A DNA stretch of 64,000 nt, taken from the NCBI RefSeq assembly GCF_035917415.1, contig NZ_CP109073.1:5264001-5328000 (forward strand). The letters are read 5' to 3'. Below are positions 12,273 through 39,702 of the stretch, one piece after another (positions within the stretch are counted from its first letter, which is position 1; each line of letters opens with the position of its first letter). The notes beneath the pieces were generated by a model, which was given only the letters and a program-made list of their open reading frames with translations, ran no database searches and was not told the DNA's origin. The DNA is from Streptomyces sp. NBC_01803. Lineage in GTDB: Bacteria > Actinomycetota > Actinomycetes > Streptomycetales > Streptomycetaceae. Position numbers and translations under genes: made by a program.

Positions 12273-12569
12273 TCGATTCGGTTTCGAAAGATGTGACCTA
12301 CGAATCGGGTGGCCGCCCTTCTTCATGTCCGGAAGTGTCCGGCGCGCAGGCGCGGATACCGGGCATGTCCAGCGCTTTCGCCCCGGATGCCACTGAGACG
12401 GCGCGGTCCCGGCGCATGGCGACGAGCGTCAATGTGTTCCAGGTCACATTAATTCCCAGTGCTGTCCCGCTCGCGCGACGTTGGCGGCACTTCTGAAACC
12501 GAATCGGCCGACGTCAGCGACGCGGCGGTGTACCTGACAGCGCGAAGGCCGGAAGGATCCTTAAGGCGC

Positions 12570-13520
12570 ATGGACAGAATCGGCTTCGTCTTCCCCGGCC
12601 AGGGGTCCCAGCGTGTGGGCATGGGTCACGACCTCGCCCAAGAGCGCCCGGAGCTGGTCGGAACCTACTACCGCCCGGCCGAGGAGATCCTCGGCCTCCC
12701 CATGTCCCAGCTCTGCTGGGAGGGCCCGGCGGAGGCCCTGAAGGACACCTCGATCACCCAGCCCGCCGTCTTCCTCACCAGCCTGTGCGTGCTCGACTCA
12801 CTGCGCGAACGCGGCCTGGCCCCCGATGTCGTCGCCGGGCACAGTCTCGGCGAGTACACCGCGCTGGTCGCGGCCGGGGTCCTGGCATGGACGGACGCGC
12901 TCCGCCTGGTCCGGCTGCGCGGTCAGCTGATGGCCGGGGTCAACGAGCGCGTGCCCGGCGCGATGGCCGCCATCGTCGGCCTGACCCTGGAGGACGTCGA
13001 GAAGATGTGCGTCCAGGCCGCCGACGTGACCGGTCAGGTGGTCGAGATCGCCAACGACAACGAGCCCGGCCAGACCGTCGTCTCCGGGCAGGTCGACGCC
13101 GTCCGGTCGGTCATGACGGCCGCCAAGGACGCCGGCGCCCGCCGCGCGGTGCCGCTGGAGGTTGGCGCCCCCTTCCACTGCTCGCTGATGAGCGGGATCG
13201 AGGAGCGGTTCGCCGCCGCCCTCGCGGAGGTGGAGTTCCGGGAGCCGGTCGTCGAGATGATCTCCTCGGTGACCGCCGAGCCCGTCACGAGCGCCGCGGG
13301 CGCCCGGGAGGTGCTCACCCGTCAACTCGCCGGCCGCGTCCGGTGGACCGGGGTGGTGAGCCGGATGGCGGCGGACGGCGTCGGACGGTTCATCGAAGTC
13401 GGACCGGGCAAGGTGCTGGCCGGCCTGTGCCGGCGGATCGTTCCCGGAGCCGGCACCCACACCACGTACGACACGCGGCAGTTCGCCGCGACCCTCGACG
13501 CGCTGGCTCCCGCCGAGTGA
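12570..13520 (+). CDS. Malonyl-CoA:ACP malonyltransferase
   Basis: 316 residues, FabD fold. It has FPGQGSQRVGMG near the N-terminus, the nucleophile elbow GHSLGEYTAL and the histidine region VGAPFHCSLM. It loads malonate from CoA onto an acyl carrier protein. Placed at the head of the polyketide cluster, it probably serves the ACP at 18615, although housekeeping FabD can also supply type II PKSs. ATG 12570 is preceded by an AAGG ribosome site. Confidence 0.9.
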   Translation: MDRIGFVFPGQGSQRVGMGHDLAQERPELVGTYYRPAEEILGLPMSQLCWEGPAEALKDTSITQPAVFLTSLCVLDSLRERGLAPDVVAGHSLGEYTALVAAGVLAWTDALRLVRLRGQLMAGVNERVPGAMAAIVGLTLEDVEKMCVQAADVTGQVVEIANDNEPGQTVVSGQVDAVRSVMTAAKDAGARRAVPLEVGAPFHCSLMSGIEERFAAALAEVEFREPVVEMISSVTAEPVTSAAGAREVLTRQLAGRVRWTGVVSRMAADGVGRFIEVGPGKVLAGLCRRIVPGAGTHTTYDTRQFAATLDALAPAE

Positions 13521-13854
13521 CGCGCGCCGGGTGAACCGCGCCGGGTGGCCCCGGCGCGGTCACGCGCCCCCTCCCGGGGTGCGCGCGGCTCCATGGGGGC
13601 CCGCACACGCGATCGTCTACGCGCGGAGCGCGGGCGGGCCCCGCCGACGGCCGTGCCGTGCCGTGCCGTGCCGAAGGCTGTGCGTGCCGAAGGCGGCGCC
13701 CGCTGAAGGCGGTGCCGTGTCGAAAAACACGCGGCACGGGGCCGTCCGGATGTTTCAAAGCGGATTCCCGCGTTCCACGGAATGGTGTTCCGCGGCATCT
13801 CAGCAGGGTTTTCCACGGATTTCCCGACAGGGGACTCCGTTGCCCGATCGCCTG

Positions 13855-13907
13855 TTGACACGAGCCGCGAAGACGTGTCACGCTTTTCCCAGCGGTCGAG
13901 CTGTGCC
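13855..13907 (+). promoter_or_regulatory. Phased cluster element, copy E1
   Basis: TTGACA (13855), 15 bp, TGTCAC (13876), 20 bp, TGTGCC (13902). It also forms the inverted repeat GACACG-N11-CGTGTC, shared with the copy at 31576. It lies 166 bp upstream of the oxygenase start at 14073. Confidence 0.62.
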
Positions 13908-13982
13908 CAAATCCAGCCGATGACCGCCCGCCTCTCCCGAGAGGCTTCCGATTCCCCCCTTCACGTCCTTCCTGACTGGCTC

Positions 13983-14020
13983 TGTCACGCCCTTTTCCGG
14001 CGGTCAGAGCTATTTTTATG
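13983..14020 (+). promoter_or_regulatory. Partial phased element E3
   Basis: TGTCACGC followed by TTTTCCGGCGGTC and a TATTTTTATG stretch resembles the right two-thirds of the phased element. The TTGACA block is absent and the spacing is 2 bp longer. It lies 53 bp before the oxygenase start, so it may be the proximal promoter. Confidence 0.45.
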
Positions 14021-14072
14021 CCATTTTCCCGTGGGCGCTCACGAACTGTTTACCCAGGTCAAGGAGAGAAGC

Positions 14073-15548
14073 ATGGACGTTCCGGTCATCGTCGTGGGCG
14101 CCGGGCCTTCCGGGCTCGTGCTGGCTGCCGAATTGCGGCTGGGCGGCGTCGAGGTCATCGTTCTCGACAAGCTGGAGAAGCCCTCGGGAGAATCCCGCGG
14201 TCTCGGCTTCACGGCCCGCGCGGTCGAATTGTTCGACCAGCGCGGCCTGCTCCCCGGATTCGGGGAGAACCTGGAGATGGCCCCCATCGGGCACTTCGGC
14301 GGCATCCTCGTGGACTACACCCAGCTCGAAGGCGCCCACTTCGGCGCACGCGGTATTCCCCAGGCCAAGACCGAGGAAGTCCTGATCGCCTGGGCGACGG
14401 ACCTCGGCGCGGACATCCGGCGCGGCTGGGAGGTCGTCGGCGTGACCGACGACGGCGCGGGCGTCGATGTCGAGGCCGAGACGCCCGAGGGCCGGCAGAC
14501 GCTGCGCGGCCGGTACGTGGTGGCCTGCGACGGCGGGCGCAGCACGGTCCGCAAGCTGATCGGCTTCGACTTCCCCGGCACCCCCTCGACTATCGAGATG
14601 TACCTGGCGGACGTGGCCGGGCTGGACCTGCCCGCCCGCCACATCGGCGAGAAGGTGCCCGGCGGCATGATCATGAACGCCCCGCTGGGCGAGGGCGTCG
14701 AGCGCATCATCGCCGCCGAGCGCGGCAACGGCCCCCGCGAGCGCACCGGCCCGCCCACCTACGATGAGGTCGCGGCCTGCTGGGAGCGCCTGTCCGGCCA
14801 GTCCATAGCCCACGGCACGGCGTCCTGGGTCAGCTCGTTCGGCGACGCGACGCACCAGGTCACCGAGTACCGCAAGGGCAACGTGCTGATCGTCGGCGAC
14901 GCCGCCCACACCCACCTCCCGGCCGGCGGCCAGGGCCTCAGCGTCAGCGTGCAGGACTCCTTCAACCTGGGCTGGAAGCTCGCCGCCACCGTGCGCGGTT
15001 GGGCCCCGCCCGAACTGCTGGACACCTATCACGCCGAGCGGCACCCGGTCGGGCAGCGACTGCTGATGACGACCCGCGCGCAGGGCATGCTCTACCTCGG
15101 TGGATCCGAGATCGAGCCGCTGCGCAACGTCTTCAAGGAGCTGCTGGAGTACTCCGAGGCGGCCCGCCACCTCATCGGCATGGTCACCGGCTTCGAGGTC
15201 CACTACGACGCCGGCTCCGGCACGCACCCACTGCTCGGCAACCGCGTCCCCAAGCAGGACCTGGTCGGCACCGGCGGCAAGACCACGACGACCGAGCTGC
15301 TGCACTCCGGCCGCGGCGTCCTGCTGGACTTCACCGACCACCCCGACCTGCGCGCCGTCGCGGCTCCCTGGTCGGACCGGATCGACATCGTCACCGCCCT
15401 GCCGCACGAGCTGTCACCCGCCAGCCCGCTGGCCGGCGTCACCGCCGTGCTGGTCCGCCCCGACGGCTACGCCGCCTGGGTGGAGCCGGACGCCGAGGGC
15501 GAGGCGCTGTCGTCGGCGCTGAACCGCTGGTTCGGCAAGCCGCGGTAG
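14073..15548 (+). CDS. FAD-dependent aromatic polyketide monooxygenase (PgaE/JadH type)
   Basis: 491 residues, class A flavoprotein hydroxylase: the N-terminal FAD motif VGAGPSGLVLAAELRL, the DG motif VVACDGGRSTVRKL, and the GD motif VGDAAHTHLPAGGQGLSVS. A thioredoxin-like C-terminal domain with VLVRPDGYAAW completes the family length. It should hydroxylate an angucyclinone precursor (typically C-12 and/or C-12b) with NADPH, FAD and O2. It is the first gene of the canonical angucycline order and is followed by the cyclase. AAGGAG precedes ATG 14073; two phased elements lie upstream. Confidence 0.88.
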   Translation: MDVPVIVVGAGPSGLVLAAELRLGGVEVIVLDKLEKPSGESRGLGFTARAVELFDQRGLLPGFGENLEMAPIGHFGGILVDYTQLEGAHFGARGIPQAKTEEVLIAWATDLGADIRRGWEVVGVTDDGAGVDVEAETPEGRQTLRGRYVVACDGGRSTVRKLIGFDFPGTPSTIEMYLADVAGLDLPARHIGEKVPGGMIMNAPLGEGVERIIAAERGNGPRERTGPPTYDEVAACWERLSGQSIAHGTASWVSSFGDATHQVTEYRKGNVLIVGDAAHTHLPAGGQGLSVSVQDSFNLGWKLAATVRGWAPPELLDTYHAERHPVGQRLLMTTRAQGMLYLGGSEIEPLRNVFKELLEYSEAARHLIGMVTGFEVHYDAGSGTHPLLGNRVPKQDLVGTGGKTTTTELLHSGRGVLLDFTDHPDLRAVAAPWSDRIDIVTALPHELSPASPLAGVTAVLVRPDGYAAWVEPDAEGEALSSALNRWFGKPR

Positions 15549-15713: not shown

Positions 15714-16043
15714 ATGCACAGCACGTTGATCGTTGCACGGATGGCGCCCGACGTCAGTGGTGATGTCGCGCGAATCTTCGGGGAATTCGACAACACGGAG
15801 ATGCCCGATCTGATGGGCACCAGGCGCCGCCAGCTCTTCTCCTACCGGGGCCTGTACTTCCATCTCCAGGACTTCGACGACGATCACGGCGGTGCCGTGA
15901 TCGAGGAGACGAAGACCCACCCGCTGTTCGTGAAGGTCAGCGACGACCTCAAGCCGTTCATCGAGGCTTATGACCCGGCGACCTGGCGTTCGCCCGCCGA
16001 TGCCATGGCCAAGCGTTTTTACCACTGGACCAAGTCTTCGTGA
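15714..16043 (+). CDS. TcmI-family polyketide cyclase
   Basis: 109 residues, the full length of the TcmI family (LanF/PgaF/JadI-like). The ferredoxin-like core shows [20 protein letters not shown], then [16 protein letters not shown] and [12 protein letters not shown] at the end. In angucycline pathways this enzyme closes the later rings after first-ring aromatisation. It lies directly before KS-alpha, as in other angucycline clusters, with AAGGGAG upstream of the ATG. Confidence 0.9.
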
Positions 16044-16074
16044 CGCTTTTCAGCCCGAAGGGGGCGACGTCAGC

Positions 16075-17331
16075 ATGCGACGGCGAGTAGTGATAACCGG
16101 CATCGGGGTCGTGGCGCCCGGCGGTATCGGCGTCAAGAACTTCTGGAGTCTGCTGAGCGAGGGCCGGACGGCGACCCGCGGGATCACGTTCTTCGATCCC
16201 ACACCGTTCCGTTCCCGGGTGGCCGCGGAGGTCGACTTCGACCCCGAGGCCGCCGGGCTCAGCCCGCAGGAGATCCGCCGGATGGACCGGGCGGCGCAGT
16301 TCGCCGTGGTCTCCGCCGCCGAGGCGGTGGCCGACAGCGGCCTCGAACCGGCCGACCTCGATCCGTACCGCACGGGGGTGACCGTCGGCAGCGCCGTCGG
16401 CGCCACGATGGGGCTCGACCAGGAGTACCGCGTCGTCAGCGACGGCGGCAGGCTCGACCTCGTGGACCACGAGTACGCGGTCCCGCACCTCTACGACTAC
16501 TTCGTGCCGAGCTCGTTCGCGCGCGAGGTGGCGTGGTCGGTGGGGGCCGAGGGCCCGGCCACCGTGGTCTCGACCGGCTGCACGTCCGGTCTCGACTCGG
16601 TCGGGTACGCCACGGAGCTGATCCGCGAGGGCAGCGTCGACGTGATGATCGCCGGCGCCTCAGATGCCCCGATCTCCCCGATCACGGTGGCCTGCTTCGA
16701 CGCCATCAAGGCGACCACCTCGCGCAACGACGACCCGGAGCACGCCTCCCGGCCGTTCGACAACTCCCGCAACGGCTTCGTCCTCGGCGAGGGCGCGGCG
16801 GTCTTCGTGCTGGAGGAGTACGAGCGCGCCAAGCAGCGCGGCGCGCGCATCTACGCCGAGATCGCGGGCTTCGCCAGCCGGTGCAACGCCTTCCACATGA
16901 CGGGTCTGCGCCCCGACGGGCGCGAGATGGCCGAGGCCATCAACACCGCCATGAACGAGGCCCGGATGAACCCGGACGAGATCGACTACATCAACGCCCA
17001 CGGCTCGGGCACCAAGCAGAACGACCGCCACGAGACGGCGGCCATGAAGCGGAGCCTGGGCGACCACGCCTACCGGACCCCGGTGAGCTCCATCAAGTCG
17101 ATGGTCGGACACTCCCTGGGCGCGATCGGCTCCATCGAGATCGCGGCCTCCGCGCTGGCCATCGAGAACAACCTCGTACCGCCCACCGCGAACCTGCACA
17201 CCGCGGACCCCGAGTGCGACCTGGACTATGTCCCGCTCAAGGCCCGCGAATGGCAGACCGACGCGGTGCTGACAGTCGGCAGCGGCTTCGGCGGCTTCCA
17301 GAGCGCGATGGTCCTGCGGAGGACGGCGTGA
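16075..17331 (+). CDS. Type II PKS ketosynthase alpha subunit
   Basis: 418 residues. The active-site cysteine is Cys169 in [13 protein letters not shown]. The histidines lie in NAHGSGT and [10 protein letters not shown]. With the beta subunit it builds the poly-beta-ketone from malonyl-ACP. Its stop overlaps the GTG start of the beta subunit by 4 bp (GTGA), so the two are translationally coupled for 1:1 assembly. ATG 16075 follows GAAGGGGG. The length and motifs are fully typical. Confidence 0.95.
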
Positions 17332-18545
17332 GCACTTCGGTAGTGGTGACGGGGCTGGGTGTCACGGCTCCCAACGGGCTCGGTACCGACGAGTACTGGG
17401 CGGCGACCAGAGGCGGCAGAAGCGGCATCGAGCCGGTCAAACGGTTCGACGCGACGGGCTACCCGTCCGTGCTGGCGGGTGAGGTCCCCGGCTTCGTCGC
17501 CGAGGACTACCTGCCCAGCAGGCTGATGCCGCAGACCGACCACATGACGCGGCTGGCGCTCGTCGCGGCCGACTGGGCACTGGCCGACGCCGGTGTCCAG
17601 CCGTCCGAGTGGGAGGCGTTCGACATGGGCGTCATCACCGCCAGCTCCTCCGGCGGCTTCGAGTTCGGCCAGAACGAGCTCCAGGCGTTGTGGAGCAAGG
17701 GCGGCCAGTACGTCAGCGCGTACCAGTCGTTCGCCTGGTTCTATGCCGTGAACACCGGTCAGATCTCGATCCGCACTGGCATGAAGGGCCCCAGCGGGGT
17801 CGTCGTGTCGGATCAGGCGGGCGGCCTGGACGCCGTCGCCCAGGCCCGCCGCCAGATCCGCAAGGGCAGCCGCCTGATCGTCACGGGCGGCGTGGATGGC
17901 TCGGTCTGCCCCTGGGGCTGGGCCGCCCAGCTCGCGGGCGGCCGGCTGAGCACCAGCGCGGACCCCGGACGGGCGTACCTGCCGTTCGACCCGGAGGCCG
18001 CGGGGCACGTGCCCGGTGAGGGCGGCGCCCTCGTCATCCTGGAGGACGCCGACTCCGCGCGCGAGCGCGGCGCCCGCGTCTACGGGGAGGTCGCCGGCTA
18101 CGGCGCGACGTTCGATCCGAGGCCGGGCAGCGGGCGCGAGCCCGGTCTGCGGCGGGCGATCGAGATCGCGCTGGACGAGTCCGGTCTCGAACCCGCCGAG
18201 CTCGACGTCGTGTTCGCCGACGCCGCGGCGGTGCCCGAGTTGGACCGCGTCGAGGCCGAGGCCATCCGGGCGGTGTTCGGCCCGCACGGCGTGCCGGTCA
18301 CCGCGCCCAAGACGATGACCGGCCGGCTGCTGTCCGGCGCCGCCTCGCTGGACCTGGCCGCCGCGCTGCTGTCCATCCGGGACGGTCTCATCCCGCCCAC
18401 CACCAACGTTTCGCCGCTCCCCGAGTACGAGCTCGACCTGGTCGTCGGCGAGCCGAGGATCGCCGACGTCGGCTCGGCGCTCGTCCTCGCCCGCGGGGAC
18501 GGCGGCTTCAACTCGGCCATGGTCGTGCGCCGGGTCGCCGGCTGA
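17328..18545 (+). CDS. Type II PKS ketosynthase beta subunit (chain length factor)
   Basis: 405 residues, paralogous to the preceding KS-alpha. The active-site cysteine is replaced by glutamine (Gln163 in [12 protein letters not shown]), the hallmark of the chain length factor that decarboxylates malonyl-ACP and sets chain length. Angucycline clusters give a decaketide; I cannot deduce the length from the residues alone. GTG 17328 overlaps the upstream stop by 4 bp. Confidence 0.94.
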
Positions 18546-18614: not shown

Positions 18615-18884
18615 ATGGCCTTTCAGGAACTCACCATCGAAGACCTCCGGCGCATCCTGCGGGAGGCCGCCGGTGAGGTCGAGAGCGTCGACCTCGACGG
18701 CGACATCCTCGACCTGACCTTCGAGGAGCTGGGCTACGACTCGCTCGCCCTGCTGGAGACCGGCAGCCGCATCGAGCGCGAGTACGGCATCGCGCTGGAG
18801 GAGACCTCGGTCGCCGACGTCGAGACGCCCGGCGCGCTGCTGACGGTCGTCAACAAGCAGCTCGCCACCGAGAACGCGGCCTGA
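18615..18884 (+). CDS. Type II PKS acyl carrier protein
   Basis: 89 residues, four-helix ACP fold. The phosphopantetheine serine is Ser43 in ELGYDSLALLE. It carries the growing polyketide between KS/CLF, ketoreductase and cyclases. No phosphopantetheinyl transferase is in the window, so activation depends on an enzyme elsewhere. GAACGAAGG upstream acts as ribosome site. A strong hairpin follows the stop. Confidence 0.95.
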   Translation: MAFQELTIEDLRRILREAAGEVESVDLDGDILDLTFEELGYDSLALLETGSRIEREYGIALEETSVADVETPGALLTVVNKQLATENAA

Positions 18885-19008: not shown

Positions 19009-19794
19009 ATGGCCGTTGAGGGGCAGCGGGTCGCTCTCGTCACGGGGGCCACCAGCGGAATCGGGCTTGCCGTCACCAGGGCTCTGGCCACGCAGGGCCA
19101 CGCGGTGTTCATCTGCGCGCGCAGCGCGGACACCGTCGAGGTGACGGTGAAGGAGCTGCGCGACGAGGGCCTTGACGTGGACGGCGCCGCGTGCGACGTC
19201 ACGTCCAAGGACGACATCAAGGCGCTGGTGCAGGCGGCCGTCGACACGTACGGCCGGGTCGACGTCCTGGTCAACAACGCGGGCCGCAGCGGCGGCGGCG
19301 TGACCGCCGACATCGAGGACGACCTCTGGTTCGACGTCGTCAACACCAACCTCAACAGCGTCTTCCTGATGACGCGCGAGGTGCTCAACACCGGCGGCAT
19401 GCGGCACCGCGACCGCGGCCGGATCATCAACATCGCGTCGACGGCCGGCAAGCAGGGCGTCGTCCTGGGCGCCCCCTACTCGGCGTCCAAGCACGGCGTC
19501 GTCGGCTTCACCAAGGCCCTCGGCAACGAGCTGGCCCCGACCGGCATCACGGTCAACGCGGTCTGCCCGGGCTACGTCGAGACGCCGATGGCCGCGAAGG
19601 TCCGCGCGGGCTACGCCGCCGCGTTCGACACCACCGAGGACCAGATCATGCAGAAGTTCACGGCCAAGATCCCGCTCGGCCGTTATTCCACCCCCGAGGA
19701 GGTGGCCGGCCTGGTGGGTTACCTCGCCACGGACACCGCCGCCTCCATCACCGCCCAGGCCATCAACGTCTGCGGCGGTCTCGGCAACTTCTGA
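19009..19794 (+). CDS. Polyketide C-9 ketoreductase
   Basis: 261 residues, short-chain dehydrogenase of the ActIII type. It has the NADPH motif TGATSGIG and the catalytic set Ser144 (IASTAG), Tyr157 and Lys161 (YSASK). The stereocontrol loop reads GRSGGG, whereas ActIII has a proline at that position. It reduces the C-9 carbonyl of the ACP-bound polyketide before cyclisation. AAGGAGAAGGC precedes the ATG. A 125-bp gap with a hairpin separates it from the ACP gene. Confidence 0.92.
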   Translation: MAVEGQRVALVTGATSGIGLAVTRALATQGHAVFICARSADTVEVTVKELRDEGLDVDGAACDVTSKDDIKALVQAAVDTYGRVDVLVNNAGRSGGGVTADIEDDLWFDVVNTNLNSVFLMTREVLNTGGMRHRDRGRIINIASTAGKQGVVLGAPYSASKHGVVGFTKALGNELAPTGITVNAVCPGYVETPMAAKVRAGYAAAFDTTEDQIMQKFTAKIPLGRYSTPEEVAGLVGYLATDTAASITAQAINVCGGLGNF

Positions 19795-19855
19795 GGCCAC
19801 CGCAGCACGGGCCCGAGGCCACCCGCACCGTTTTTCCGAGGGATTGGGAGACTTG

Positions 19856-20803
19856 ATGATGACGGAGTCCGGCCACCGCGAGGTGGAGCACGAGATCACG
19901 GTGGACGCCCCGGCCGCCGACGTCTACCGGCTGATCGCCGAAGTGGTCAACTGGCCGCGCATCTTCCCGCCGACCGTGTTCGTCGACCACGTCGAGCGCA
20001 GCGGGAACACCGAGCGCATCCGCATCTGGGCCACCGCCAACGGCGAGGCCAAGAACTGGACCTCGCGCCGGGTGCTCGACCCCGAGAAGCTGCGGATCGA
20101 GTTCCGCCAGGAAGTGTCCACGCCGCCGGTCGCGGCCATGGGCGGGACCTGGCTGATCGAGTCGATCTCCGACACCCAGTCACGGGTGCGGCTGCTGCAC
20201 GACTACCGGGCCATCGACGACGACCCGGACAGCCTGGCCTGGATCGACCAGGCCGTGGACCGCAACAGCCGGTCCGAGCTGGCCGCCCTGAAGAAGAACG
20301 TCGAACTCGCCACCGGCGCCGACGACCTGTACCTGGCCTTCGAGGACACGGTGCAGATCGACGGCTCCGCCAAGGACGTGTACGACTTCCTCAACGAGGC
20401 GTCGCTCTGGAAGGAGCGGCTGGCGCACGTCGCCCGCGTCGAACTCACCGAGGACACCCCGGGTCTGCAGATCCTGGAGATGGACACCCGCACCAAGGAC
20501 GGGTCCACGCACACCACCAAGTCGGTGCGCGTGTGCTTCCCGGACAGCAGGATCGTCTACAAGCAGATCACGCTGCCGGCGCTGATGACCCTGCACACCG
20601 GCTACTGGAAGCTGGAGGAGAACGCCGACGGCGTCGCCGCCACCTCCCAGCACGCGGTGATCATCAACACCGAGAACATCAAGAAGATCCTGGGCGACGA
20701 CGCCGGTCTGGCCGAGGCCAAGACGTTCGTCAAGAACGCCCTGAGCACCAACAGCACCGCCACCCTCGGGTACGCCAAGGCGTACGCGGAGGGCAAGCGC
20801 TGA
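19856..20803 (+). CDS. Didomain aromatase/cyclase
   Basis: 315 residues with two START/polyketide-cyclase-like domains (about 8-150 and 160-310). The first begins EVEHEITVDAPAADVYRLIA and the second ENVQ-type region begins DTVQIDGSAKDVYDFLNEA. Such didomain enzymes cyclise and aromatise the first ring of C-9-reduced polyketides (PgaL/JadD type). ATG 19856 follows GGGAG; an ATG directly after it is equally possible. Only 1 bp separates its stop from the next gene. Confidence 0.9.
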   Translation: MMTESGHREVEHEITVDAPAADVYRLIAEVVNWPRIFPPTVFVDHVERSGNTERIRIWATANGEAKNWTSRRVLDPEKLRIEFRQEVSTPPVAAMGGTWLIESISDTQSRVRLLHDYRAIDDDPDSLAWIDQAVDRNSRSELAALKKNVELATGADDLYLAFEDTVQIDGSAKDVYDFLNEASLWKERLAHVARVELTEDTPGLQILEMDTRTKDGSTHTTKSVRVCFPDSRIVYKQITLPALMTLHTGYWKLEENADGVAATSQHAVIINTENIKKILGDDAGLAEAKTFVKNALSTNSTATLGYAKAYAEGKR

Positions 20804-20804
20804 T

Positions 20805-23800
20805 ATGGACACCCAGGTCATCATCGTCGGCGCGGGGCCGGTCGGCCTGATGCTGGCCGGTGAGCTCCGGCTCGGCGGGGCCGAGGTGATCGTGCTGGAA
20901 CGCCTCGCGACCCCGACCACCGAGTCCCGCGCCTCGACTCTCCATGCCCGCACCATGGAGATCCTGGACCAGCGGGGCCTGCTGACCACGCTGGGCACAC
21001 CGCCCAACGACCCGGTGAGCCACTTCGGCGGCCTGCCGCTGGACCTCGGCGGGCAGCCGTCCCGCTACCGGGGCCAGTGGAAGGTGCCGCAGGCGCGGGT
21101 CGAGGCCCTGCTGGCCCAGTGGGCCGGCGGACTCGGCGCCGACATCCGGCGCGAGTACCGGGTCACCGGCCTCGTCGCCGGCGAGGACGGGGTCGAGGTC
21201 GAGGCCGCCACACCCGGCGGCCCGGCCCGGCTGACCGCCGCCTGGGTCGTCGGCTGCGACGGGGAGGACAGCGCCGTACGCCGCCTGGGCGGCTTCGACT
21301 TCCCCGGCCACGACGCCACCCGCGAGCTGGTGCGGACCGATGTCACCGGCGTCGACATCCGCAACCGGCGCTTCGAGCGGACGCCCAACGGGCTGGCCAT
21401 CGCGGCCACCCGGGACGGCGTCACCCGGGTCATGGTCCACGAGTTCGGCCGGCCGCCCGGAGTGCGCGACGGAGAGCCCGAGTTCGCCGAGGTCGCCGAG
21501 GTGTGGTCCCGGGTGACCGGCGAGGACATCAGCGGCGGCACCCCGATCTGGGTCAACGCCTTCGGCAACACCACCCGCCTGGCGGCCCGTTACCGCCAGG
21601 GCCGGCTGCTGCTGGCCGGCGACGCCGCGCACCGGCAGATGCCGGTCGGCGGACAGGCGCTGAACCTGGGCCTCCAGGACGCGGTGAACCTGGGCTGGAA
21701 GCTGGCCGCCGAGGTGACCGGCCGGGCCCCCGCCGGGCTGCTCGACACCTACCACGAGGAGCGGCACGGCGTCGGCGAACGGGTCCTGGGCAACATCGAG
21801 GCCCAGGCGCTGCTGCTGCTCGGTGGCGGCGAGGTCGACGCGCTGCGCGCCACCACGGGCGAGCTGATGGGCCACACGGCCGTCCGCGACCGCCTGGGCG
21901 CGATGATCAGCGGCCTCGACATCCGCTACGACATCGGCGACGAGCCCCTGGTCGGGGCCCGTATGCCGCATCTGGACCTGGTGACGGAATCCGGGGTGAC
22001 GAGCACCATCGCGCTGCTGCGCGGCGGTCGGGGTGTCTTGCTGGACCTGTCCGGCGACCCGGACCGGCGCGCGGTGCTGACCGCGCTGGCCGCCGGCCGG
22101 GTGGACGTGGTGGCGGCGCTCGCCGCCCCCGACGCCCCGCTGGAGGGCCAGGAGACGGTGCTTATCCGCCCGGACGGATACGTCGCCTGGGCCGGCGACC
22201 GGGCGGCCGATCCCGCCGCCGTACTGGACCGCTGGTTCGAAGCTGCCCGCACGGCTGACACGTCCAGTTCGCACGAGGCACGGAAACGCGATTCCGAAGA
22301 GAGAGGCGGGCTGATGCCCAGCAAGATCAAGGCAACGAGTGAGGCCAAGGGGCCCGAGCAGGCCCAGACGTGCGACGTTCTGATCCTCGGTTCCGGTCTC
22401 GCGGGCTCGGTGGCCGGGGCGTGCCTGTCCCGGCAGGGCGCGAACGTGGTGCTGGTCGACGCCGGGCAGCACCCGCGGTTCGCCATCGGCGAGTCGATGA
22501 CACCGCAGCTCGTCGAGTGGCTGCGCATCTGCGAGAAGCGCTTCGAGGTCCCGGAGATCGGCTACCTGCTGGACGCCAAGGCGGTCGCCAAGAACATCGG
22601 CCCGCACCACGGGCGCAAGCAGAGCTTCGGGTTCATCAAGCACAAGGTCGGGCAGGAGCCCGACCCCGAGGAAGCGACGATGTTCGTCATCCCCAAGGTG
22701 CTGACCGACGCCAGCCACCTGTTCCGCCAGGACACCGACCAGTTCTTCTTCAACGTCGCCGCCAAGTACGGCTGCACGACGCGCCAGAACTGGCGCGCGG
22801 CCGACCTGGACTTCGACGACGACGGGGTCACCGTCACCGGCCAGAACGGTGAGGTCTTCCGGGCGAAGTACCTGATCGACGCCAGTGGTTTCCGTTCCCC
22901 GCTGGCCGAGAAGTTCGACCTGCGGGAGAAGCCGGCCCGCTTCAAGCACCACGCCCGGTCGATGTTCACCCACTTCATCGACCTGAAGCCGTTCGACGAC
23001 GTGTCGCACCACCCGGTGAGCCAGCGCCCGCCGGCCAAGTGGCACGACGGCACGCTGCACCACCTCATCGACCGCGGCTGGTTCTGGATCATCCCGTTCA
23101 ACAACCTCAAGGGATCGGCGAACCCGGTGGTCAGCGTCGGTCTCACGATCGACGAGCGCACCTACCCCAAGCCCAAGGACATGACCCCGGAGGAGGAGTT
23201 CAACAAATTCCTCGACATGTACCCGGCGGTCAAGCGCCAGTTCGTGGGCGCCAAGCGGGTGCGTGAGTGGATCTCCACCGACCGGCTCCAGTACTCCTCG
23301 AAGCGTTCGATCGGCAACCGCTGGTGCCTGATGTCGCACGCGGCGGGCTTCCTGGACCCGCTGTTCTCCCGCGGCCTGTCCAACACCTTCGAGGTCGTGT
23401 ACTCGCTGTGCACGCGCATCCTCGACTCGCTGGAGGACGACAACTGGTCGGAGGAGCGGTTCGAGTACGTCGAGCAACTGGAGCGGGGTCTGCTCCAGTT
23501 CAACGACGACCTGGTGAACAGCTCCTACATCTCGTTCTCCCACTTCCGCCTGTGGAACGCGATGTTCCGCGTCTGGGCCGGGTATCTCACCCCGGGCGTC
23601 ATCCGGCTGGTCCGGGCGGTCGGCGAGTTCGAGCTGAGCGGCGACGACAAGTTCCTGCGCGACCTGGAGAATCCGCCCTACCCGGGGCTGTGGTTCCCCG
23701 AGAGCCACAACCTCAAGAAGCTGGTCGACCTGGCCGCCGAGACTTGCGAGAAGTACGAGGTCGGGGAGATCGACGGCGACACCGCCGCCGACATCATCTT

Positions 23801-24011
23801 CGACTTCATGCGCAAGGACCCCACGATGAACCCGGTCTTCGGCTTCAAGGATCCGGAGAGCACCCGGTTCATCTACCCGACTGCGGCCGACATCGCCAAG
23901 TTCATGTGGTGGGCGAACACCAAGGCTCCCGAGGGCGAGATGCGGCAGATGGCCCGGCAGATGGTCAAGGTCGCCGCGCGCGCCACCGCGAAGGGCAAGC
24001 GGCTGATCTAG
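20805..24011 (+). CDS. In-frame fusion: angucycline FAD oxygenase plus flavin-dependent halogenase-like protein
   Basis: 1068 residues in one uninterrupted frame. Residues 1 to about 490 form a PgaM-type class A FAD oxygenase (VGAGPVGLMLAGELRL; VVGCDGEDSAVRRL; GDAAHRQMPVGGQALN). Residues 504-1068 resemble a flavin-dependent halogenase: counted from Met504 (base 22314), FAD motif GSGLAG (26-31), a candidate catalytic Lys102 in GRKQSFGF, WFWIIP matching WxWxIP (256-261), and FLDPLFSRG matching FxxPxxSxG (346-354). GAGAGG lies 8 bases before the ATG at 22314, so the halogenase part may also be made separately, as the reductase part of PgaM is. No stop codon separates the parts. The oxygenase part probably acts on the angucyclinone ring system; the second part may chlorinate or brominate it (inference). 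Confidence 0.8.
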   Translation: MDTQVIIVGAGPVGLMLAGELRLGGAEVIVLERLATPTTESRASTLHARTMEILDQRGLLTTLGTPPNDPVSHFGGLPLDLGGQPSRYRGQWKVPQARVEALLAQWAGGLGADIRREYRVTGLVAGEDGVEVEAATPGGPARLTAAWVVGCDGEDSAVRRLGGFDFPGHDATRELVRTDVTGVDIRNRRFERTPNGLAIAATRDGVTRVMVHEFGRPPGVRDGEPEFAEVAEVWSRVTGEDISGGTPIWVNAFGNTTRLAARYRQGRLLLAGDAAHRQMPVGGQALNLGLQDAVNLGWKLAAEVTGRAPAGLLDTYHEERHGVGERVLGNIEAQALLLLGGGEVDALRATTGELMGHTAVRDRLGAMISGLDIRYDIGDEPLVGARMPHLDLVTESGVTSTIALLRGGRGVLLDLSGDPDRRAVLTALAAGRVDVVAALAAPDAPLEGQETVLIRPDGYVAWAGDRAADPAAVLDRWFEAARTADTSSSHEARKRDSEERGGLMPSKIKATSEAKGPEQAQTCDVLILGSGLAGSVAGACLSRQGANVVLVDAGQHPRFAIGESMTPQLVEWLRICEKRFEVPEIGYLLDAKAVAKNIGPHHGRKQSFGFIKHKVGQEPDPEEATMFVIPKVLTDASHLFRQDTDQFFFNVAAKYGCTTRQNWRAADLDFDDDGVTVTGQNGEVFRAKYLIDASGFRSPLAEKFDLREKPARFKHHARSMFTHFIDLKPFDDVSHHPVSQRPPAKWHDGTLHHLIDRGWFWIIPFNNLKGSANPVVSVGLTIDERTYPKPKDMTPEEEFNKFLDMYPAVKRQFVGAKRVREWISTDRLQYSSKRSIGNRWCLMSHAAGFLDPLFSRGLSNTFEVVYSLCTRILDSLEDDNWSEERFEYVEQLERGLLQFNDDLVNSSYISFSHFRLWNAMFRVWAGYLTPGVIRLVRAVGEFELSGDDKFLRDLENPPYPGLWFPESHNLKKLVDLAAETCEKYEVGEIDGDTAADIIFDFMRKDPTMNPVFGFKDPESTRFIYPTAADIAKFMWWANTKAPEGEMRQMARQMVKVAARATAKGKRLI

Positions 24012-25784: not shown

Positions 25785-26744
25785 CTACGAAGACGGGCCC
25801 TGGTCCCGCTCCGGGGCCCCGGCGGGCTGGACACGGGCCAGCTTCTCGGGGTTGGTGACGGCGTAGATCTCGCGGACCTGGTCGCCCTCCGGGGTCAGGT
25901 CCATCACGACCACCGCGAACGGGGTGTCGCCGGAGAACACCACGGCCGACTGGTCCCCGCCCGCCCGCCCGTAGCGGACCCGGAGCTCCGCGGGCGGCCG
26001 GGAGGCGTAACCGGCCATCAGGCGGGCCACCTTCTCGCGGCCGGTGACCGGACGCAGCGCCGCCGACCGCACCTTGCCGCCACCGTCGGTCCACATGGTC
26101 ACGTCGGGGGCCAGCAGCCGCAGCAGGGAGTCGATGTCGCCGCCGAGCGCGGCGGCCACGAAGCGCTCGGTGACCTGCCGTTGCAGGGCCGGGTCGGCCC
26201 GGAAACGCGGCCTGCGGGCATGGACGTGCTCGCGGGCGCGATGGGCGAGCTGCCGCACGGCGGACGGACTGCGGTCCAGGATGCCGGCGATCTCGGCATG
26301 GGCGTAGCCGAAGACCTCGTGCAGCACGAACACCGCGCGCTCCAGCGGGGTCAGGGTCTCCAGCACCACCAGCACCGCCATCGACACCGACTCGGTGCGC
26401 AGCGCGCGGTCCCCGGCGTCGGAGGTGTCGGCGACCAGCGGCTCCGGCAGCCAGGGGCCGACGTACGCCTCGCGGCGGCGGCTGATGGCCGCCTGCCGGG
26501 CCAGCGCCTGGTTCACGGCGATCCGCACCAGGTAGGCCCGCGGATTGTCGATCTCCGGCGCCGCCGGCCGCGCGCTCGCGCGGGCCCACGACAGCCATGT
26601 CTCCTGGAGCACGTCCTCGGTGTCCGCGACGCTGCCGAGCATGTTGTAGACGATCGAGAACAGCAGCTCCCGGTGGCCGACGAACACGCTCGTCGCGGCG
26701 TCCAGCGACGAGTCGGTCGAGTCTGCTGCCGGAGTGTCGGACAT
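25785..26744 (-). CDS. ECF41-type RNA polymerase sigma factor (SigJ-like), copy 1
   Basis: 319 residues. Sigma region 2 spans about 15-85 (FVGHRELLFSIVYNMLG, AYLVRIAVNQALARQ). The ECF41 linker motif is WLPEPL. Region 4 ends in SPSAVRQLAHRAREHV. A C-terminal SnoaL-like domain carries the ECF41 motifs DGGGK and NPEKL. In this group the C-terminal domain modulates activity and there is no membrane anti-sigma factor. GGAAAGG precedes ATG 26744. Its own upstream region carries the motif found before other genes here, pointing to autoregulation. Highly similar to the sigma factor at 38584. Confidence 0.92.
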   Translation of the reverse strand: MSDTPAADSTDSSLDAATSVFVGHRELLFSIVYNMLGSVADTEDVLQETWLSWARASARPAAPEIDNPRAYLVRIAVNQALARQAAISRRREAYVGPWLPEPLVADTSDAGDRALRTESVSMAVLVVLETLTPLERAVFVLHEVFGYAHAEIAGILDRSPSAVRQLAHRAREHVHARRPRFRADPALQRQVTERFVAAALGGDIDSLLRLLAPDVTMWTDGGGKVRSAALRPVTGREKVARLMAGYASRPPAELRVRYGRAGGDQSAVVFSGDTPFAVVVMDLTPEGDQVREIYAVTNPEKLARVQPAGAPERDQGPSS

Positions 26745-26779
26745 CGTGCTGCCTTTCCTGCTGGCGCGCTCCCCGCGCG

Positions 26780-26808
26780 GGAGGGACGGCGCCGACCGGA
26801 GGGTGACG
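26780..26808 (-). promoter_or_regulatory. ECF41-type promoter motif P5
   Basis: On the minus strand: CGTCACC, 16 bp, CCCTCC, located 36 bp before the sigma gene start at 26744. It is the least perfect of the five copies in its half-sites, but its spacer is very similar to the motif at 9889-9917. Confidence 0.55.
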
Positions 26809-26928
26809 TTCGCTCCGGCGAGCATAGCGGCCCCCGTGTGACCTCGGCGGACCGCTTCCCCACGCCCGGAATCCCCCCAACACATCACGTACAGCGGACC
26901 TTTCTCGTACTGGGAGGAACACGACAGC

Positions 26929-28554
26929 ATGAACACAACCACCACGGAGTCGCAGGCGCCCGAGCCGTACGACGTCGCGATTCTCGGCGCGGGCATGGCC
27001 GGCGGCATGCTGGGCGCGGCGCTGGCCCGTAACGGGGTCAAGGTCCTGCTGATCGACGCGGGCGTCCACCCCCGCTTCGCGGTGGGGGAGTCGACGATTC
27101 CCTACACCTCGTCGATGACCAGGATCATCGCCGAGCGCTACCAGGTGCCCGAGATCGAACCGCTGGCCAGCTTCAAGGGCATCCAGGAGACCGTCGGCCG
27201 GATGAGCGGCCGGAAGCAGAACTTCGGCTTCGTGTACCACCAGGAGGGCCGGCCGCAGGACCCGGAGCAGATCAACCAGCTGGTGGTCCCGGAGTGGCAG
27301 CGCACCGAGAGCCACCTCTTCCGGCAGGACATCGACAGCTACCTGTTCAACGTCGCCGTCCGCTACGGCGCCGAGCCGCGCACCAACACCCGGATCAAGG
27401 ACATCCTGATCGAGCCGTCCCTCGGCGTCCTGCTCCGCGCCGACAACGGCGAGGAGTTCCACGCCAAGTACCTGGTGGACGGCAGTGGCTTCCGCTCGCC
27501 CGTGGCCGACGCCTTCGGCCTGCGCGAGACCCCGACCCGCGCGCGGGCCCACTCCCGCACGATCTTCACGCACATGATCGGCGTCACCCCCTTCGACGAC
27601 GCCCCGGCGGCCAAGTCGCACGACCAGCCCAGCCCGTGGCACCACGGAACGCTGCACCACGTCTTCGACGGCGGCTGGCTGTGGGTCATCCCGTTCGACA
27701 ACCACGACGGGTCGCTCAACCCGCTGTGCAGCGTCGGGCTGACGCTGGACCCGCGCATGTACCCCAAGCAGGAGGGCGTCGGCCCGCAGCAGGAGTTCGA
27801 GGACTTCCTGAAGCGTTTCCCGGAGATCGCCGAGCAGTTCACCCAGGCGAAGGCGGTCCGCCCGTGGGTGGCCACCGGCCGCCTCCAGTACTCGTCGACG
27901 AAGACGGTCGGCGACCGGTACGTCCTGACCGCGCACGCCGCCGGGTTCATCGACGCGCTGTACTCGCGCGGCCTGACCAACACCCTTGAGGTCGTCAACG
28001 CCCTGGCGTGGCGCCTGATCGAGGCGTCGCGCGACGACGACTGGTCCACCGAGCGCTTCGCGTACGTGGACCGCCTCCAGCAGGGCCTGTTCGACGTCCA
28101 CGACGACCTGGTCTTCTGCTCCTTCGTCGGCTTCAAGCACTACGACCTGTGGAACGCGGTCCTGCGGGTGTGGGAGTCGACCAGCATCCTGCCGACGGTC
28201 ACCATCGACCAGGCGTACCGGCGGTACATGCAGAACCGCGACGACCAGATCTTCCGCGACCTGGAGAAGCGCGACGTGCCCGGCCTGCCGGCCGCGGTCG
28301 GCGCGGACATCAACGGGCTGCTGACCTTCGCCCGGGAGACCTGCCTGGCCGTCGAGGACGGCTCGCTGGCCCCGGCCGAGGCGTCCGAGCGCCTGTTCGC
28401 CAGGCTCCAGGAGGCCGCGTTCCTCCCGGCGCCGTTCCGGCTGGGCGCGCCGGACAACAAGTGCTTCAACGCGACGCAGGAGCTCATCGGGAAGGCCGTG
28501 CAGTGGGCCGGGACCGACGCTCCCGAGAACATCGCCGCGCTCTTCCGCCCCTGA
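26929..28554 (+). CDS. Second flavin-dependent halogenase-like enzyme
   Basis: 541 residues, clearly paralogous to the C-terminal part of the fusion protein at 20805. Motifs: GAGMAGG (FAD), GVHPRFAVGES, candidate catalytic Lys96 in GRKQNFGF, and WLWVIP (250-255, WxWxIP). FIDALYSRG (340-348) is the third halogenase motif with its proline replaced by alanine. It needs reduced FAD from a partner reductase; two flavin reductase genes lie at 33.8-35.0 kb. Halogenation of the polyketide is the simplest reading, but members of this family with unusual motifs can have other oxidative roles. GGGAGG precedes ATG 26929. Confidence 0.78.
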   Translation: MNTTTTESQAPEPYDVAILGAGMAGGMLGAALARNGVKVLLIDAGVHPRFAVGESTIPYTSSMTRIIAERYQVPEIEPLASFKGIQETVGRMSGRKQNFGFVYHQEGRPQDPEQINQLVVPEWQRTESHLFRQDIDSYLFNVAVRYGAEPRTNTRIKDILIEPSLGVLLRADNGEEFHAKYLVDGSGFRSPVADAFGLRETPTRARAHSRTIFTHMIGVTPFDDAPAAKSHDQPSPWHHGTLHHVFDGGWLWVIPFDNHDGSLNPLCSVGLTLDPRMYPKQEGVGPQQEFEDFLKRFPEIAEQFTQAKAVRPWVATGRLQYSSTKTVGDRYVLTAHAAGFIDALYSRGLTNTLEVVNALAWRLIEASRDDDWSTERFAYVDRLQQGLFDVHDDLVFCSFVGFKHYDLWNAVLRVWESTSILPTVTIDQAYRRYMQNRDDQIFRDLEKRDVPGLPAAVGADINGLLTFARETCLAVEDGSLAPAEASERLFARLQEAAFLPAPFRLGAPDNKCFNATQELIGKAVQWAGTDAPENIAALFRP

Positions 28555-34435: not shown

Positions 34436-34984
34436 GTGACTCCTGCATCCACTCAGGCGCCGCACCAGGTGAAGCCGGTCGAGGGAAGGACCCTGCGCGA
34501 TGTGTGCGGGCTCTTCGTCACCGGTGTCACCGTCATCACCGCCGGAATGGGGGAGGAGGCGGCCGGCACCACGGTCAACTCGTTCACCTCCGTCTCCCTC
34601 GACCCGCCGCTGGTGCTGTTCTGCCTGCACAACGACTCGCGGCTGCGCCCGGTGGTCGAGAGCACCGGCGCCTACGCGGTCAACTTTCTCGCCGGGCGGC
34701 AGGAGCGCGTCGCGCGCGCCTTCGCCGGCAAGGACACCGCCGCCATCACGGACGTGGCGCACCACTCGTCGGTGACGGGGGTGCCGGTGCTCAGCGACGC
34801 GCTGGCGTTCCTGTCCTGCCGGCTCGTCAACACCTTCGACGGCGGCGACCACACCATCTTCGTCGGCGAGGTGCTCGAACTCGGCGTACCCCGACAGTCG
34901 CAGGAACCGCTGATCTTCTTCCGCGGCTTCCTCGGCGCCCTGGAGGAGGAACCGCGCGGTGTCCACCCGATCTTCGACGGCTGA
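34436..34984 (+). CDS. Flavin reductase, tandem copy B
   Basis: 182 residues, about 88% identical to copy A by eye, with most differences in the first 10 residues and around residue 70. Motifs are unchanged (LFVTGVTVITAG, GDHTIFVGEV). It must be a recent tandem duplication kept in frame and intact. GTG 34436 follows GGGGG. Its last 26 bases overlap the start of the NmrA-type gene. Confidence 0.9.
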   Translation: MTPASTQAPHQVKPVEGRTLRDVCGLFVTGVTVITAGMGEEAAGTTVNSFTSVSLDPPLVLFCLHNDSRLRPVVESTGAYAVNFLAGRQERVARAFAGKDTAAITDVAHHSSVTGVPVLSDALAFLSCRLVNTFDGGDHTIFVGEVLELGVPRQSQEPLIFFRGFLGALEEEPRGVHPIFDG

Positions 34985-35966
34985 TTCTTCGACGGCTGTC
35001 CCTTCGACGGCCGTCCGGACCGTTCTCGTCACCGGGGCGACCGGCACGGTGGGGCGCGCCCTCGTGGCGTCCCTGCTGGCCGCCGGCGCCTCGGTCCGGG
35101 CCGTCACCCGCGACCCACTGACCGCGGGACTGCCCGGGCGGGCCCAGGTCGTCGGCGGCGACCCCAACGCGCCGGAAACCCTGGCCGGCGCCCTCGACGG
35201 CGTCAGCGCCGTCTTCGTCAACCCGGCCGCGGCCGGGGACCTCACCGGCAGGCTGCTGGGCCTCGCCCGCGAGCGGGGGGTCGGCCGCGCCGTGCTGCTG
35301 TCCTCCGCGGCGGTCCGCGACGAGGCCGCCCAGGACGCCGACCCGCTGGTGTTCTGGCACCGGCTGCTGGAGGAGACGGTCACCGCCTCCGGGCTGGACT
35401 GGACGGTGCTGCGCTGCTCCGAGTTCGCCGCCAACACGCTGACGGGCTGGGGGCCGGGCATCCGCGCCGCGGGCGTGGTCCGCGAGGCCCACGCCATGGC
35501 GGCGTCGGCGCCCGTGCACGAGCGGGACGTCGCCGACGTGGCCGCCCGTGTCCTGCTCTCCGGCGGGCACGCGGGCGCCACGCTCACGGTGACCGGCCCC
35601 GAGTCCCTGACCCGCAGGCGCATGGCGCGCATCGTCGCGCAGGCGATCGGGCGGCCCGTCCGGTTCGAGCGTCTGCCGCGCGAGCGGGCCGTCCGGCACC
35701 TGATGGCCACCCGCGGACTGTCCGAGGGCATCGCGGAGTCGGTGGTGCGCCTCCAGGAAGAGGCCGCCGGCCGACCCGCGTTCGTCACCTCCGAGGTGGA
35801 ACGCGTCACCGGCCGCCCGGCGTTGACGTTCGCCCGGTGGGCGGCCGAACACGTCGCCGACTTCGCCCGCGTTCCCGCGCCCGCGCCCGTGCCGGTGGCG
35901 GCGCCCGGGTCCGGGTCCGGGTCCCTGTCCGTCTCCGACCGCCCCGCCGCGCGCAGTGGAAGGTAG
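34959..35966 (+). CDS. NmrA-like NAD(P)-binding protein
   Basis: 335 residues, atypical short-chain reductase: Rossmann motif VTGATGTVGRALVASLL, then SGLDWTVLRCSEFAANTL and a C-terminal substrate lobe. It lacks the standard SDR Tyr-x3-Lys, as NmrA-type members do. Because the cluster has no PgaMred/LanV-type reductase, it is a candidate for a late ketoreduction (inference). GTG 34959 overlaps the flavin reductase end by 26 bp with GGAGG upstream, implying coupling. The C-terminus is a Pro/Gly/Ser repeat tail. Confidence 0.78.
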   Translation: MSTRSSTADSSTAVPSTAVRTVLVTGATGTVGRALVASLLAAGASVRAVTRDPLTAGLPGRAQVVGGDPNAPETLAGALDGVSAVFVNPAAAGDLTGRLLGLARERGVGRAVLLSSAAVRDEAAQDADPLVFWHRLLEETVTASGLDWTVLRCSEFAANTLTGWGPGIRAAGVVREAHAMAASAPVHERDVADVAARVLLSGGHAGATLTVTGPESLTRRRMARIVAQAIGRPVRFERLPRERAVRHLMATRGLSEGIAESVVRLQEEAAGRPAFVTSEVERVTGRPALTFARWAAEHVADFARVPAPAPVPVAAPGSGSGSLSVSDRPAARSGR

Positions 35967-39588: not shown

Positions 39589-39620
39589 GGTGTGCCTCCC
39601 GTGTGATGCGCTCCCAGATG

Positions 39621-39649
39621 AGAGGGCCGGTGGGCGCCCGAGTGTGACA
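39621..39649 (-). promoter_or_regulatory. ECF41-type promoter motif P4
   Basis: On the minus strand: TGTCACA (39649-39643), 16 bp, CCCTCT (39626-39621), 33 bp before the sigma factor ATG. It matches the motif before the MFS exporter exactly in both halves and spacing. Confidence 0.7.
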
Positions 39650-39702
39650 TCGCGACGGCGGATGACGGGAAATGTGGCCTGCGTCTCACCTCGGGCCGCT
39701 GA

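What the first reader, a model, noticed from the sequence alone, without database searches (positions are those of the whole stretch)
20805..24011. Angucycline oxygenase fused in frame to a flavin-dependent halogenase-like protein
One 1068-codon frame joins a PgaM-type FAD oxygenase to a protein with halogenase signatures (GxGxxG, WFWIIP, FLDPLFSRG, GRKQSFGF). In gaudimycin and landomycin-type clusters the equivalent oxygenase is fused or linked to a short-chain reductase. An internal ATG with a ribosome site at 22314 suggests the second part may also be made alone, as reported for PgaM. I know of no described oxygenase-halogenase fusion of this type.
Basis: partly seen in the sequence, partly recalled or inferred. 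Interest (0 to 1): 0.85.

Follow-up and report, generated by a model that had tools for sequence, protein, structure and literature searches.

The report
Angucycline oxygenase fused to a halogenase
In a Streptomyces-like bacterium's antibiotic gene cluster, an enzyme that shapes an aromatic (angucycline) molecule is joined in one chain to an enzyme that probably adds chlorine, in the place where well-studied relatives carry a reductase; such fusions arose at least twice and suggest that the two steps are physically coupled.

Summary
One stop-free 1068-codon frame (20805-24011) joins a PgaM-type angucycline FAD oxygenase (residues 1-~480) through a low-confidence, probably flexible linker to a flavin-dependent halogenase of the CtcP (tetracycline 7-halogenase) family, with the catalytic-lysine position, WxWxIP and FxxPxxSxG intact. 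The gene sits where PgaM sits (PgaE, cyclase, KSa, KSb, ACP, KR, cyclase, this gene). In PgaM, UrdM and LanM2 that place holds an oxygenase-SDR fusion; here a halogenase stands instead. The fusion is not unique: at least 24 database proteins (two partial) share it, in two groups whose halogenase halves belong to different lineages (one clade rejected, AU p 8e-10), so it arose at least twice. Some unfused relatives have the two genes adjacent or overlapping. The internal ATG at 22314 has the strongest Shine-Dalgarno match of 44 in-frame starts tested and coincides with the start of the separate halogenase gene in relatives; it recurs in 21 of 24 aligned fusions and is lost in P0012-P0014, where the halogenase can apparently be made only as a fusion. 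Likely outcome: a fused oxygenase-halogenase plus a separately translated halogenase, chlorinating an early angucyclinone. Translation, activity and substrate are inferred. I saw no report of such a fusion in the open-access papers searched.

The parts
20805..22244 (+). N-terminal PgaM-type FAD oxygenase domain of the fusion (residues 1-480; GAGPVG at 9, CDGEDS at 151, GDAAH at 272, Rng_hyd_C 381-481)
   Evidence: in the PgaM clade of the oxygenase tree
22245..22364 (+). Interdomain linker (about residues 481-520), low AlphaFold confidence (481-517 below 50), containing the internal ribosome site and start
22300..22309 (+). Shine-Dalgarno-like AGAGAGGCGG before the internal start
22314..22316 (+). 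Internal (nested) ATG, start of a putative 565-aa stand-alone halogenase; the ATG follows a TG, so a TGATG motif spans 22312-22316
22314..24011 (+). C-terminal flavin-dependent halogenase domain, CtcP family (K605, WFWIIP, FLDPLFSRG); the Pfam Trp_halogenase match on this half
12459..13520 (+). Acyltransferase
13782..15548 (+). Separate PgaE-type FAD oxygenase (domain from about 14073)
15714..16043 (+). Polyketide cyclase (PgaF type)
15970..17331 (+). Ketosynthase alpha (start uncertain)
17322..18545 (+). Ketosynthase beta / chain length factor (start approximate)
18615..18884 (+). Acyl carrier protein
19009..19794 (+). Ketoreductase (PgaD type)
19844..20803 (+). Aromatase/cyclase (PgaL type), stop 1 nt before the fusion gene's ATG
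26929..28554 (+). Second, separate halogenase (44% to the C half); of the lineage that supplied the halogenases of the second set of fusions
34436..34984 (+). Flavin reductase, candidate FADH2 supplier for the halogenases

Best explanation
This is a real bifunctional tailoring gene of an angucycline-type type II polyketide cluster. A PgaM-type flavoprotein oxygenase, which in PgaM and LanM2 performs 2,3-dehydration (for LanM2 with chain release), is fused through a probably flexible linker to a CtcP-family FADH2-dependent halogenase that takes the place of the usual C6-ketoreductase (SDR) domain. Shown: one open frame, both domains with their signature residues, the PgaM genomic position, conservation in relatives, at least two independent fusions, and a strong internal start at the place where the halogenase gene starts in unfused relatives. 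Inferred: the gene yields a 1068-aa fusion and also a 565-aa free halogenase from the internal start; the halogenase uses FADH2 from a separate flavin reductase (34436-34984); hypohalous acid formed at the flavin is passed to K605, which chlorinates an early angucyclinone close to where the oxygenase releases it. Physical coupling to the oxygenase is the part least supported.
For: Open frame and domains. N half to CabE/PgaE, inside the PgaM clade: 62 rows at 100*, the 6 PgaE-type rows outside at 99* (quick tree rooted on the PgaE-type rows). C half to CtcP 605 bits, with catalytic-lysine alignment (CtcP Lys98 and PltM Lys87 from PMC12400496 passages). At least 24 fused homologues; 6 of 78 named loci and 3 of 392 Streptomyces-group genomes (window's own included) with the full-length fused frame. 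Synteny with KSa, KSb, ACP, KR, cyclase upstream. Halogenase start with a purine-rich site in unfused loci at the equivalent position. Nested-start SD ranks 1/44, 1/35, 3/38, 2/48, 2/26 and 2/26 in the 6 of 8 fused loci examined that keep it. M or V at that position in 21 of 24 aligned fusions. Linker of low model confidence, both halves matching CtcP and CabE/PgaE structures. Flavin reductase in the window.
Against: No expression, proteomic or chemical data. The strong nested start could mean that much halogenase is made unfused, the fusion being a read-through by-product. In group 1 fused halogenase halves interleave with separate halogenases (one clade rejected), so fusion is not strictly maintained. 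P0121, probably another version of the same DNA, carries a frameshift in the halogenase part. The closest enzyme of known structure, CtcP, is itself weakly active or inactive in vitro (PMC12400496). The conservation of the internal ribosome site over its surroundings is clear in window against L009 but weak in L014 against L018.
Confidence: 0.72

Rival explanations
1. The junction is a read-through accident of two translationally coupled genes: the stop of the oxygenase drifted out of frame, most halogenase is made from the internal start, and the fused chain has no special role.
For: Strong SD and ATG at the junction. Unfused relatives place the halogenase start at the same point, and two Actinomadura loci have an overlapping TGATG stop/start (L042, L046). 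Fused and unfused halogenases interleave in group 1. Third-position G+C dips in the linker.
Against: Fusions arose with two different halogenase lineages. In P0012-P0014 the start codon is gone, and in L022 and L029 no start near the junction has more than median SD strength, so there the halogenase appears to depend on the fusion. Several linkers are long and Ala/Pro-rich or repetitive, without stops.
Confidence: 0.2
2. The C half is a halogenase-family protein that no longer halogenates (for example a hydroxylase or a structural partner of the oxygenase), and chlorination, if any, is done by the second halogenase at 26929-28554.
For: A second halogenase is present in the window and in L009. 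CtcP activity is hard to show in vitro (PMC12400496).
Against: K605, WxWxIP and FxxPxxSxG are all kept in the C half, while the second halogenase and the second fusion group have Ala for Pro in FxxPxxSxG. K605 is invariant in 24 aligned fusions. A flavin reductase is in the window.
Confidence: 0.07
3. Assembly or database artefact: the frame is split in the living strain.
For: P0121 carries a frameshift after residue 558.
Against: The shift lies inside the conserved halogenase FAD motif, not between the halves. The close S. specialis locus L009 and P0001 (94%) have the full frame, as do 14 further proteins of 1066-1133 residues at 64-71% identity (P0002-P0015).
Confidence: 0.02

Closest known systems
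PgaM / UrdM / LanM2 / LugOII oxygenase-SDR fusions (angucycline biosynthesis)
   Same: Same oxygenase clade as the oxygenase-SDR rows sampled, same place after the PgaL-type cyclase, C-terminal partner joined by a linker; [quoted passage not shown] 79 of 87 proteins among P0032-P0120 with a recognisable SDR motif have a Met within 14 residues before it.
   Different: The C-terminal partner is a flavin-dependent halogenase, not an SDR ketoreductase.
CtcP, tetracycline 7-halogenase (also PltM)
   Same: C half aligns along nearly all of CtcP (605 bits), with the catalytic lysine and signature motifs.
   Different: CtcP is a single protein of the chlortetracycline pathway; here the halogenase is fused to an oxygenase in an angucycline-type cluster.
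XanH, halogenase fused to a flavin reductase (xantholipin); KrmI-ThiF; AoiQ with an O-methylation domain
   Same: Natural fusions that contain a flavin-dependent halogenase (PMC8407142 passages).
   Different: Partners are a flavin reductase, a ThiF protein or a methylation domain; none is a PgaM-type oxygenase.
Chlorinated angucyclinones: chlorocyclinones, allocyclinones, maduralactomycins/actinospirols
   Same: Product class that such a cluster could make (PMC11766693 and PMC10951976 passages).
   Different: No gene cluster with this fusion was linked to them in the passages read; the product here is unknown.

Membership tests
PgaM-type bifunctional oxygenase-reductase | N-terminal FAD oxygenase of the PgaM clade | tested here: met
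   with the 12 SDR-fused rows in a 62-row clade at 100*, the 6 PgaE-type rows outside
PgaM-type bifunctional oxygenase-reductase | C-terminal SDR ketoreductase domain | tested here: not met
   C half is a halogenase. In the window, PgaM-type SDR queries hit only the PKS ketoreductase, at 26%
PgaM-type bifunctional oxygenase-reductase | Gene follows PKS ketoreductase and PgaL-type cyclase | tested here: met
Flavin-dependent halogenase, CtcP family | Near full-length homology to CtcP | tested here: met
   best structure match, TMt 0.93
Flavin-dependent halogenase, CtcP family | Catalytic lysine (CtcP Lys98) | tested here: met
   K605 aligned, invariant in 24 aligned fusions
Flavin-dependent halogenase, CtcP family | WxWxIP and FxxPxxSxG motifs (motif names recalled) | tested here: met
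   WFWIIP 759, FLDPLFSRG 849
Flavin-dependent halogenase, CtcP family | Separate flavin reductase available | tested here: met
   Flavin_Reduct gene 34436-34984; pairing with the halogenase not shown
Flavin-dependent halogenase, CtcP family | Halide-dependent halogenation | not testable with these tools
   Needs an enzyme assay
Nested gene of the PgaM kind | Internal in-frame start with a strong ribosome site | tested here: met
   Rank 1 of 44 starts tested
Nested gene of the PgaM kind | Separate C-terminal product made in the cell | not testable with these tools
   Needs proteomics or tagging

The most novel reading that the evidence does not exclude
The PgaM-type oxygenase serves as an exchangeable docking platform: its C-terminal slot has accepted an SDR and, independently, two different halogenase lineages, usually with an internal start so that fused and free forms of the partner are made together and may assemble into one complex. 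In this reading the fusion chlorinates the nascent angucyclinone as the oxygenase releases it, before the C6 position is fixed, diverting the pathway from ketoreduction to halogenation.
Probability: 0.3. Interest if true: 0.78.

Novelty: new variant of a known kind. Interest (0 to 1): 0.58.

Why it matters
Flavin-dependent halogenases are sought for late-stage chlorination, and natural fusions that have been studied are few (three seen in the passages of a 2021 review). A natural oxygenase-halogenase with fused, unfused and apparently obligately fused relatives offers a ready comparison for asking whether fusion channels an unstable intermediate. It points to at least two dozen fusion proteins; where DNA was held, the setting is an angucycline-type cluster that could make chlorinated products. 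It also shows that the reductase position in PgaM is evolutionarily exchangeable.

Tried and rejected
Rejected: chance open frame (longest stop-free run in 30 shuffles was 412 codons; at least 24 fused homologues). Rejected: the C half as a plain hydroxylase by sequence (CtcP 605 bits). Rejected: a single halogenase origin for all fusions. The first test (p 6e-8, and p 1e-60 for group 1 alone) wrongly counted P0025, a piece of a fusion, as separate; on checking, I moved P0025 to the fused rows and left out P0026 and P0028, whose unfused state is uncertain. The repeated tests give p 8e-10 for all 25 fused rows and p 2e-7 for the 18 of group 1. Trees are of the quick kind with SH-aLRT only, and the N rows called 'alone' are database proteins whose gene surroundings were not seen. 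L106 looked stop-free over both halves but comes from a 55%-complete assembly with frame breaks; followed in the broken frame, the oxygenase ends at a stop before the halogenase, so it was dropped. P0016 was left out of trees and of alignment A2; P0017 (N-terminally partial, frameshifted tail) was kept. The trees used 74 N rows, and 73 then 71 C rows, chosen by hand from larger hit lists. Only 6 of 21 loci with a 45-50% oxygenase next to the halogenase entered them. DNA for the second fusion group (P0018-P0024) could not be had, so its internal start is known at protein level only. The AlphaFold model has 24 aligned rows, pLDDT 71.7 and pTM 0.51; domain-domain placement is not interpreted. Papers: open-access PMC only; of the listings, I opened passages of PMC7765855, PMC11766693, PMC8407142, PMC6165268 and PMC4981433. 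The PgaM nested-gene work by Kallio and colleagues is recalled and was not found in the library.
Full report
Observation. The frame 20805-24011 on the plus strand is open for 1068 codons, ATG to TAG. At 71% G+C long frames are cheap: the minus strand carries a 1329-aa frame across the same stretch. Codon-position G+C of 0.69/0.46/0.95 and above all homologues show that the plus frame is the gene. Pfam finds FAD_binding_3 and Rng_hyd_C in residues 2-481, and Trp_halogenase in the second half.

The halves. Residues 1-503 match CabE (468 bits), PgaE (444 bits) and other angucycline oxygenases of known structure; FAD motifs GAGPVG, CDGEDS and GDAAH are present. In a quick tree of 74 oxygenases the N half falls in the clade of PgaM-type proteins, which holds all 12 oxygenase-SDR rows sampled (100*), apart from the 6 PgaE-type enzymes on which the tree was rooted, the window's own separate PgaE homologue among them. 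Residues 504-1068 match CtcP, the tetracycline 7-halogenase, at 605 bits and PltM at 331. K605 aligns with the catalytic lysine of CtcP and PltM (Lys98 and Lys87 in PMC12400496, passages read; chain numbering differs from the paper's, probably by tag residues). WFWIIP and FLDPLFSRG are intact. An AlphaFold model (pLDDT 71.7, pTM 0.51) gives two folded halves and a 481-517 linker of low confidence; Foldseek pairs them with CtcP (TMt 0.93) and CabE/PgaE (0.87/0.85).

Setting. Upstream lie an acyltransferase, a PgaE-type oxygenase, a cyclase, KS alpha, KS beta, ACP, ketoreductase and aromatase/cyclase. From the PgaE homologue on, this is the pga order as I recall it; the order from PgaA to PgaM is also listed for grecocycline in PMC4943663 (passages). 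The fusion gene is in PgaM's place. [quoted passage not shown] Downstream are an F420-dependent quinone-reductase-like gene, ABM genes, a second halogenase (26929-28554), transporters, a flavin reductase (34436-34984) and an NmrA-like NAD(P)-binding gene (34959-35966). SDR queries from two PgaM-type proteins hit nothing in the window except the PKS ketoreductase, at 26%; the NmrA-like gene remains a possible reductase. L009, L016, L022, L029, and the unfused L013, L042 and L084, also lack a hit, while L014, L018, L088, L015 and L017 have a separate SDR at 42-49% (these loci are at most about 22 kb, so an SDR further away would be missed).

How widespread. A search with the whole fusion returned 588 proteins, the best 120 listed. 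Twenty-four of these carry both halves in one chain: P0001 at 94%, P0002-P0015 at 64-71%, two partial ones (P0016, P0017), and P0018-P0024 at 44-58% over the aligned part (49-50% over the whole chain). P0025 and P0078 look like further pieces of fusions; most of the rest are oxygenase-SDR or halogenase-only proteins. A scan of species genomes with the halogenase half kept 78 loci (of 286 stretches encoding relatives, the best 80 were kept). With 8 loci of the window's own genome, 86 were examined; a halogenase with an oxygenase close upstream on the same strand was found in 36, of which 7 are in-frame fused (own plus L009, L014, L016, L018, L022, L029) and 29 split. Of the 29, six have a PgaM-type oxygenase (L013, L015, L017, L042, L046, L084), 21 a 45-50% oxygenase and two a 35% one. 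In 392 genomes of the window's genus, 3 show a full-length stop-free match, the window's own included; one of the other two is probably S. specialis again. So the fusion is rare but conserved.

At least two origins. In the halogenase tree the fused halves P0018-P0024 group with the window's second halogenase (10-row clade, 98*), far from the group 1 fusions. Holding all 25 fused rows as one clade is rejected (p 8e-10). The 18 rows of group 1 alone are also not one clade (p 2e-7): split and stand-alone halogenases interleave. In the oxygenase tree, P0018-P0024 also lie apart from group 1, but the branches that say so have supports of 90 and 93 and are not starred. Repeated fusion, fission or recombination inside group 1 cannot be told apart here.

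Internal start. At 22314 an ATG is preceded by AGAGAGGCGG. Its predicted pairing with the 16S tail (-10.7 kcal/mol) ranks 1 of 44 in-frame start codons tested. The equivalent start ranks 1/35 in L009, 3/38 in L014, 2/48 in L016 (GTG), 2/26 in L018 and 2/26 in L088. In L022 and L029 no strong site is left (ranks 16/32 and 24/47). These loci are not independent: window with L009, and L014 with L018 and L088, are close. In unfused loci L013, L015, L017 and L084 the halogenase gene has a start at the corresponding codon behind a purine-rich site, and in L042 and L046 it overlaps the oxygenase stop as TGATG. In 21 of 24 aligned fusions the residue is Met or Val; P0012-P0014 have lost it. Window and L009 are identical over the 20 bases that hold the internal ATG and 90% over the 20 before, against 65-75% in the four 20-base blocks before that; in L014 against L018 the contrast is weak (90% and 85% against 60-80%). 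The internal start therefore looks like the retained start of a once separate gene, kept in most fusions seen and lost in P0012-P0014, L022 and L029 (P0012 and L029 are both from Actinacidiphila alni), where the halogenase appears to depend on the fusion.

Mechanism. Most likely the gene gives a fused oxygenase-halogenase and a free halogenase. The N half probably does the PgaM-type 2,3-dehydration and release step; the C half uses FADH2 from the separate reductase to make hypohalous acid, which K605 directs at an electron-rich ring of the released angucyclinone. In CtcP work, chlorination earlier in the pathway than thought was proposed because the late substrate is poorly used (PMC12400496); fusion to an early enzyme would fit such timing, but this is inference. 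A bolder version, in which the oxygenase flavin feeds the halogenase directly, is not favoured, since a flavin reductase is present.

Novelty. Natural halogenase fusions in the passages read of a 2021 review are KrmI-ThiF, XanH-flavin reductase and AoiQ (PMC8407142). The searches for an angucycline or oxygenase-halogenase fusion showed no report (mostly listings, open-access PMC only, so subscription papers may be missed). Sources that name the fused proteins call them 'FAD-dependent monooxygenase', 'FAD dependent oxidoreductase' or 'FADH2 O2-dependent halogenase'. I rate it a new variant of a known kind: a domain swap in the PgaM architecture.

Uncertainties. No expression or chemistry. One database protein identical over 558 residues then shifts frame. 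The product is unknown; chlorocyclinones, allocyclinones and maduralactomycins are chlorinated angucycline-type compounds from actinomycetes, but no link can be made here.

Noticed in passing
26929-28554: The second halogenase and the halogenases of fusions P0018-P0024 carry FIDALYSRG, with Ala for Pro in the FxxPxxSxG motif, unlike the fused halogenase of the finding.
   Followed up: partly
L013 8752-9870, L042 8862-9998, L046 8865-9998: In three Actinomadura loci the oxygenase frame before the halogenase ends about 373-379 codons after the start of its match, apparently without the C-terminal Rng_hyd_C part.
   Followed up: no
L019-L021, L023-L028, L030-L038, L057, L058, L065: 21 loci with a related halogenase (62-67%) behind a different oxygenase (45-50% to the N half; 52-54% to the window's PgaE in the five checked), apparently a separate kind of cluster.
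   Followed up: partly
P0030: An 829-aa database protein from a metagenome-assembled Micromonosporaceae joins two FAD oxygenases in one chain; could be an assembly effect.
   Followed up: no
L022 and L029, position 10001; L016, position 16634: A second halogenase, about 70% like the window's fused one, lies a few kb downstream of the fusion in three clusters.
   Followed up: no
25785-27041 and 38584-39714, minus strand: Two sigma factor genes with SnoaL-like matches lie in and beside the tailoring region.
   Followed up: no
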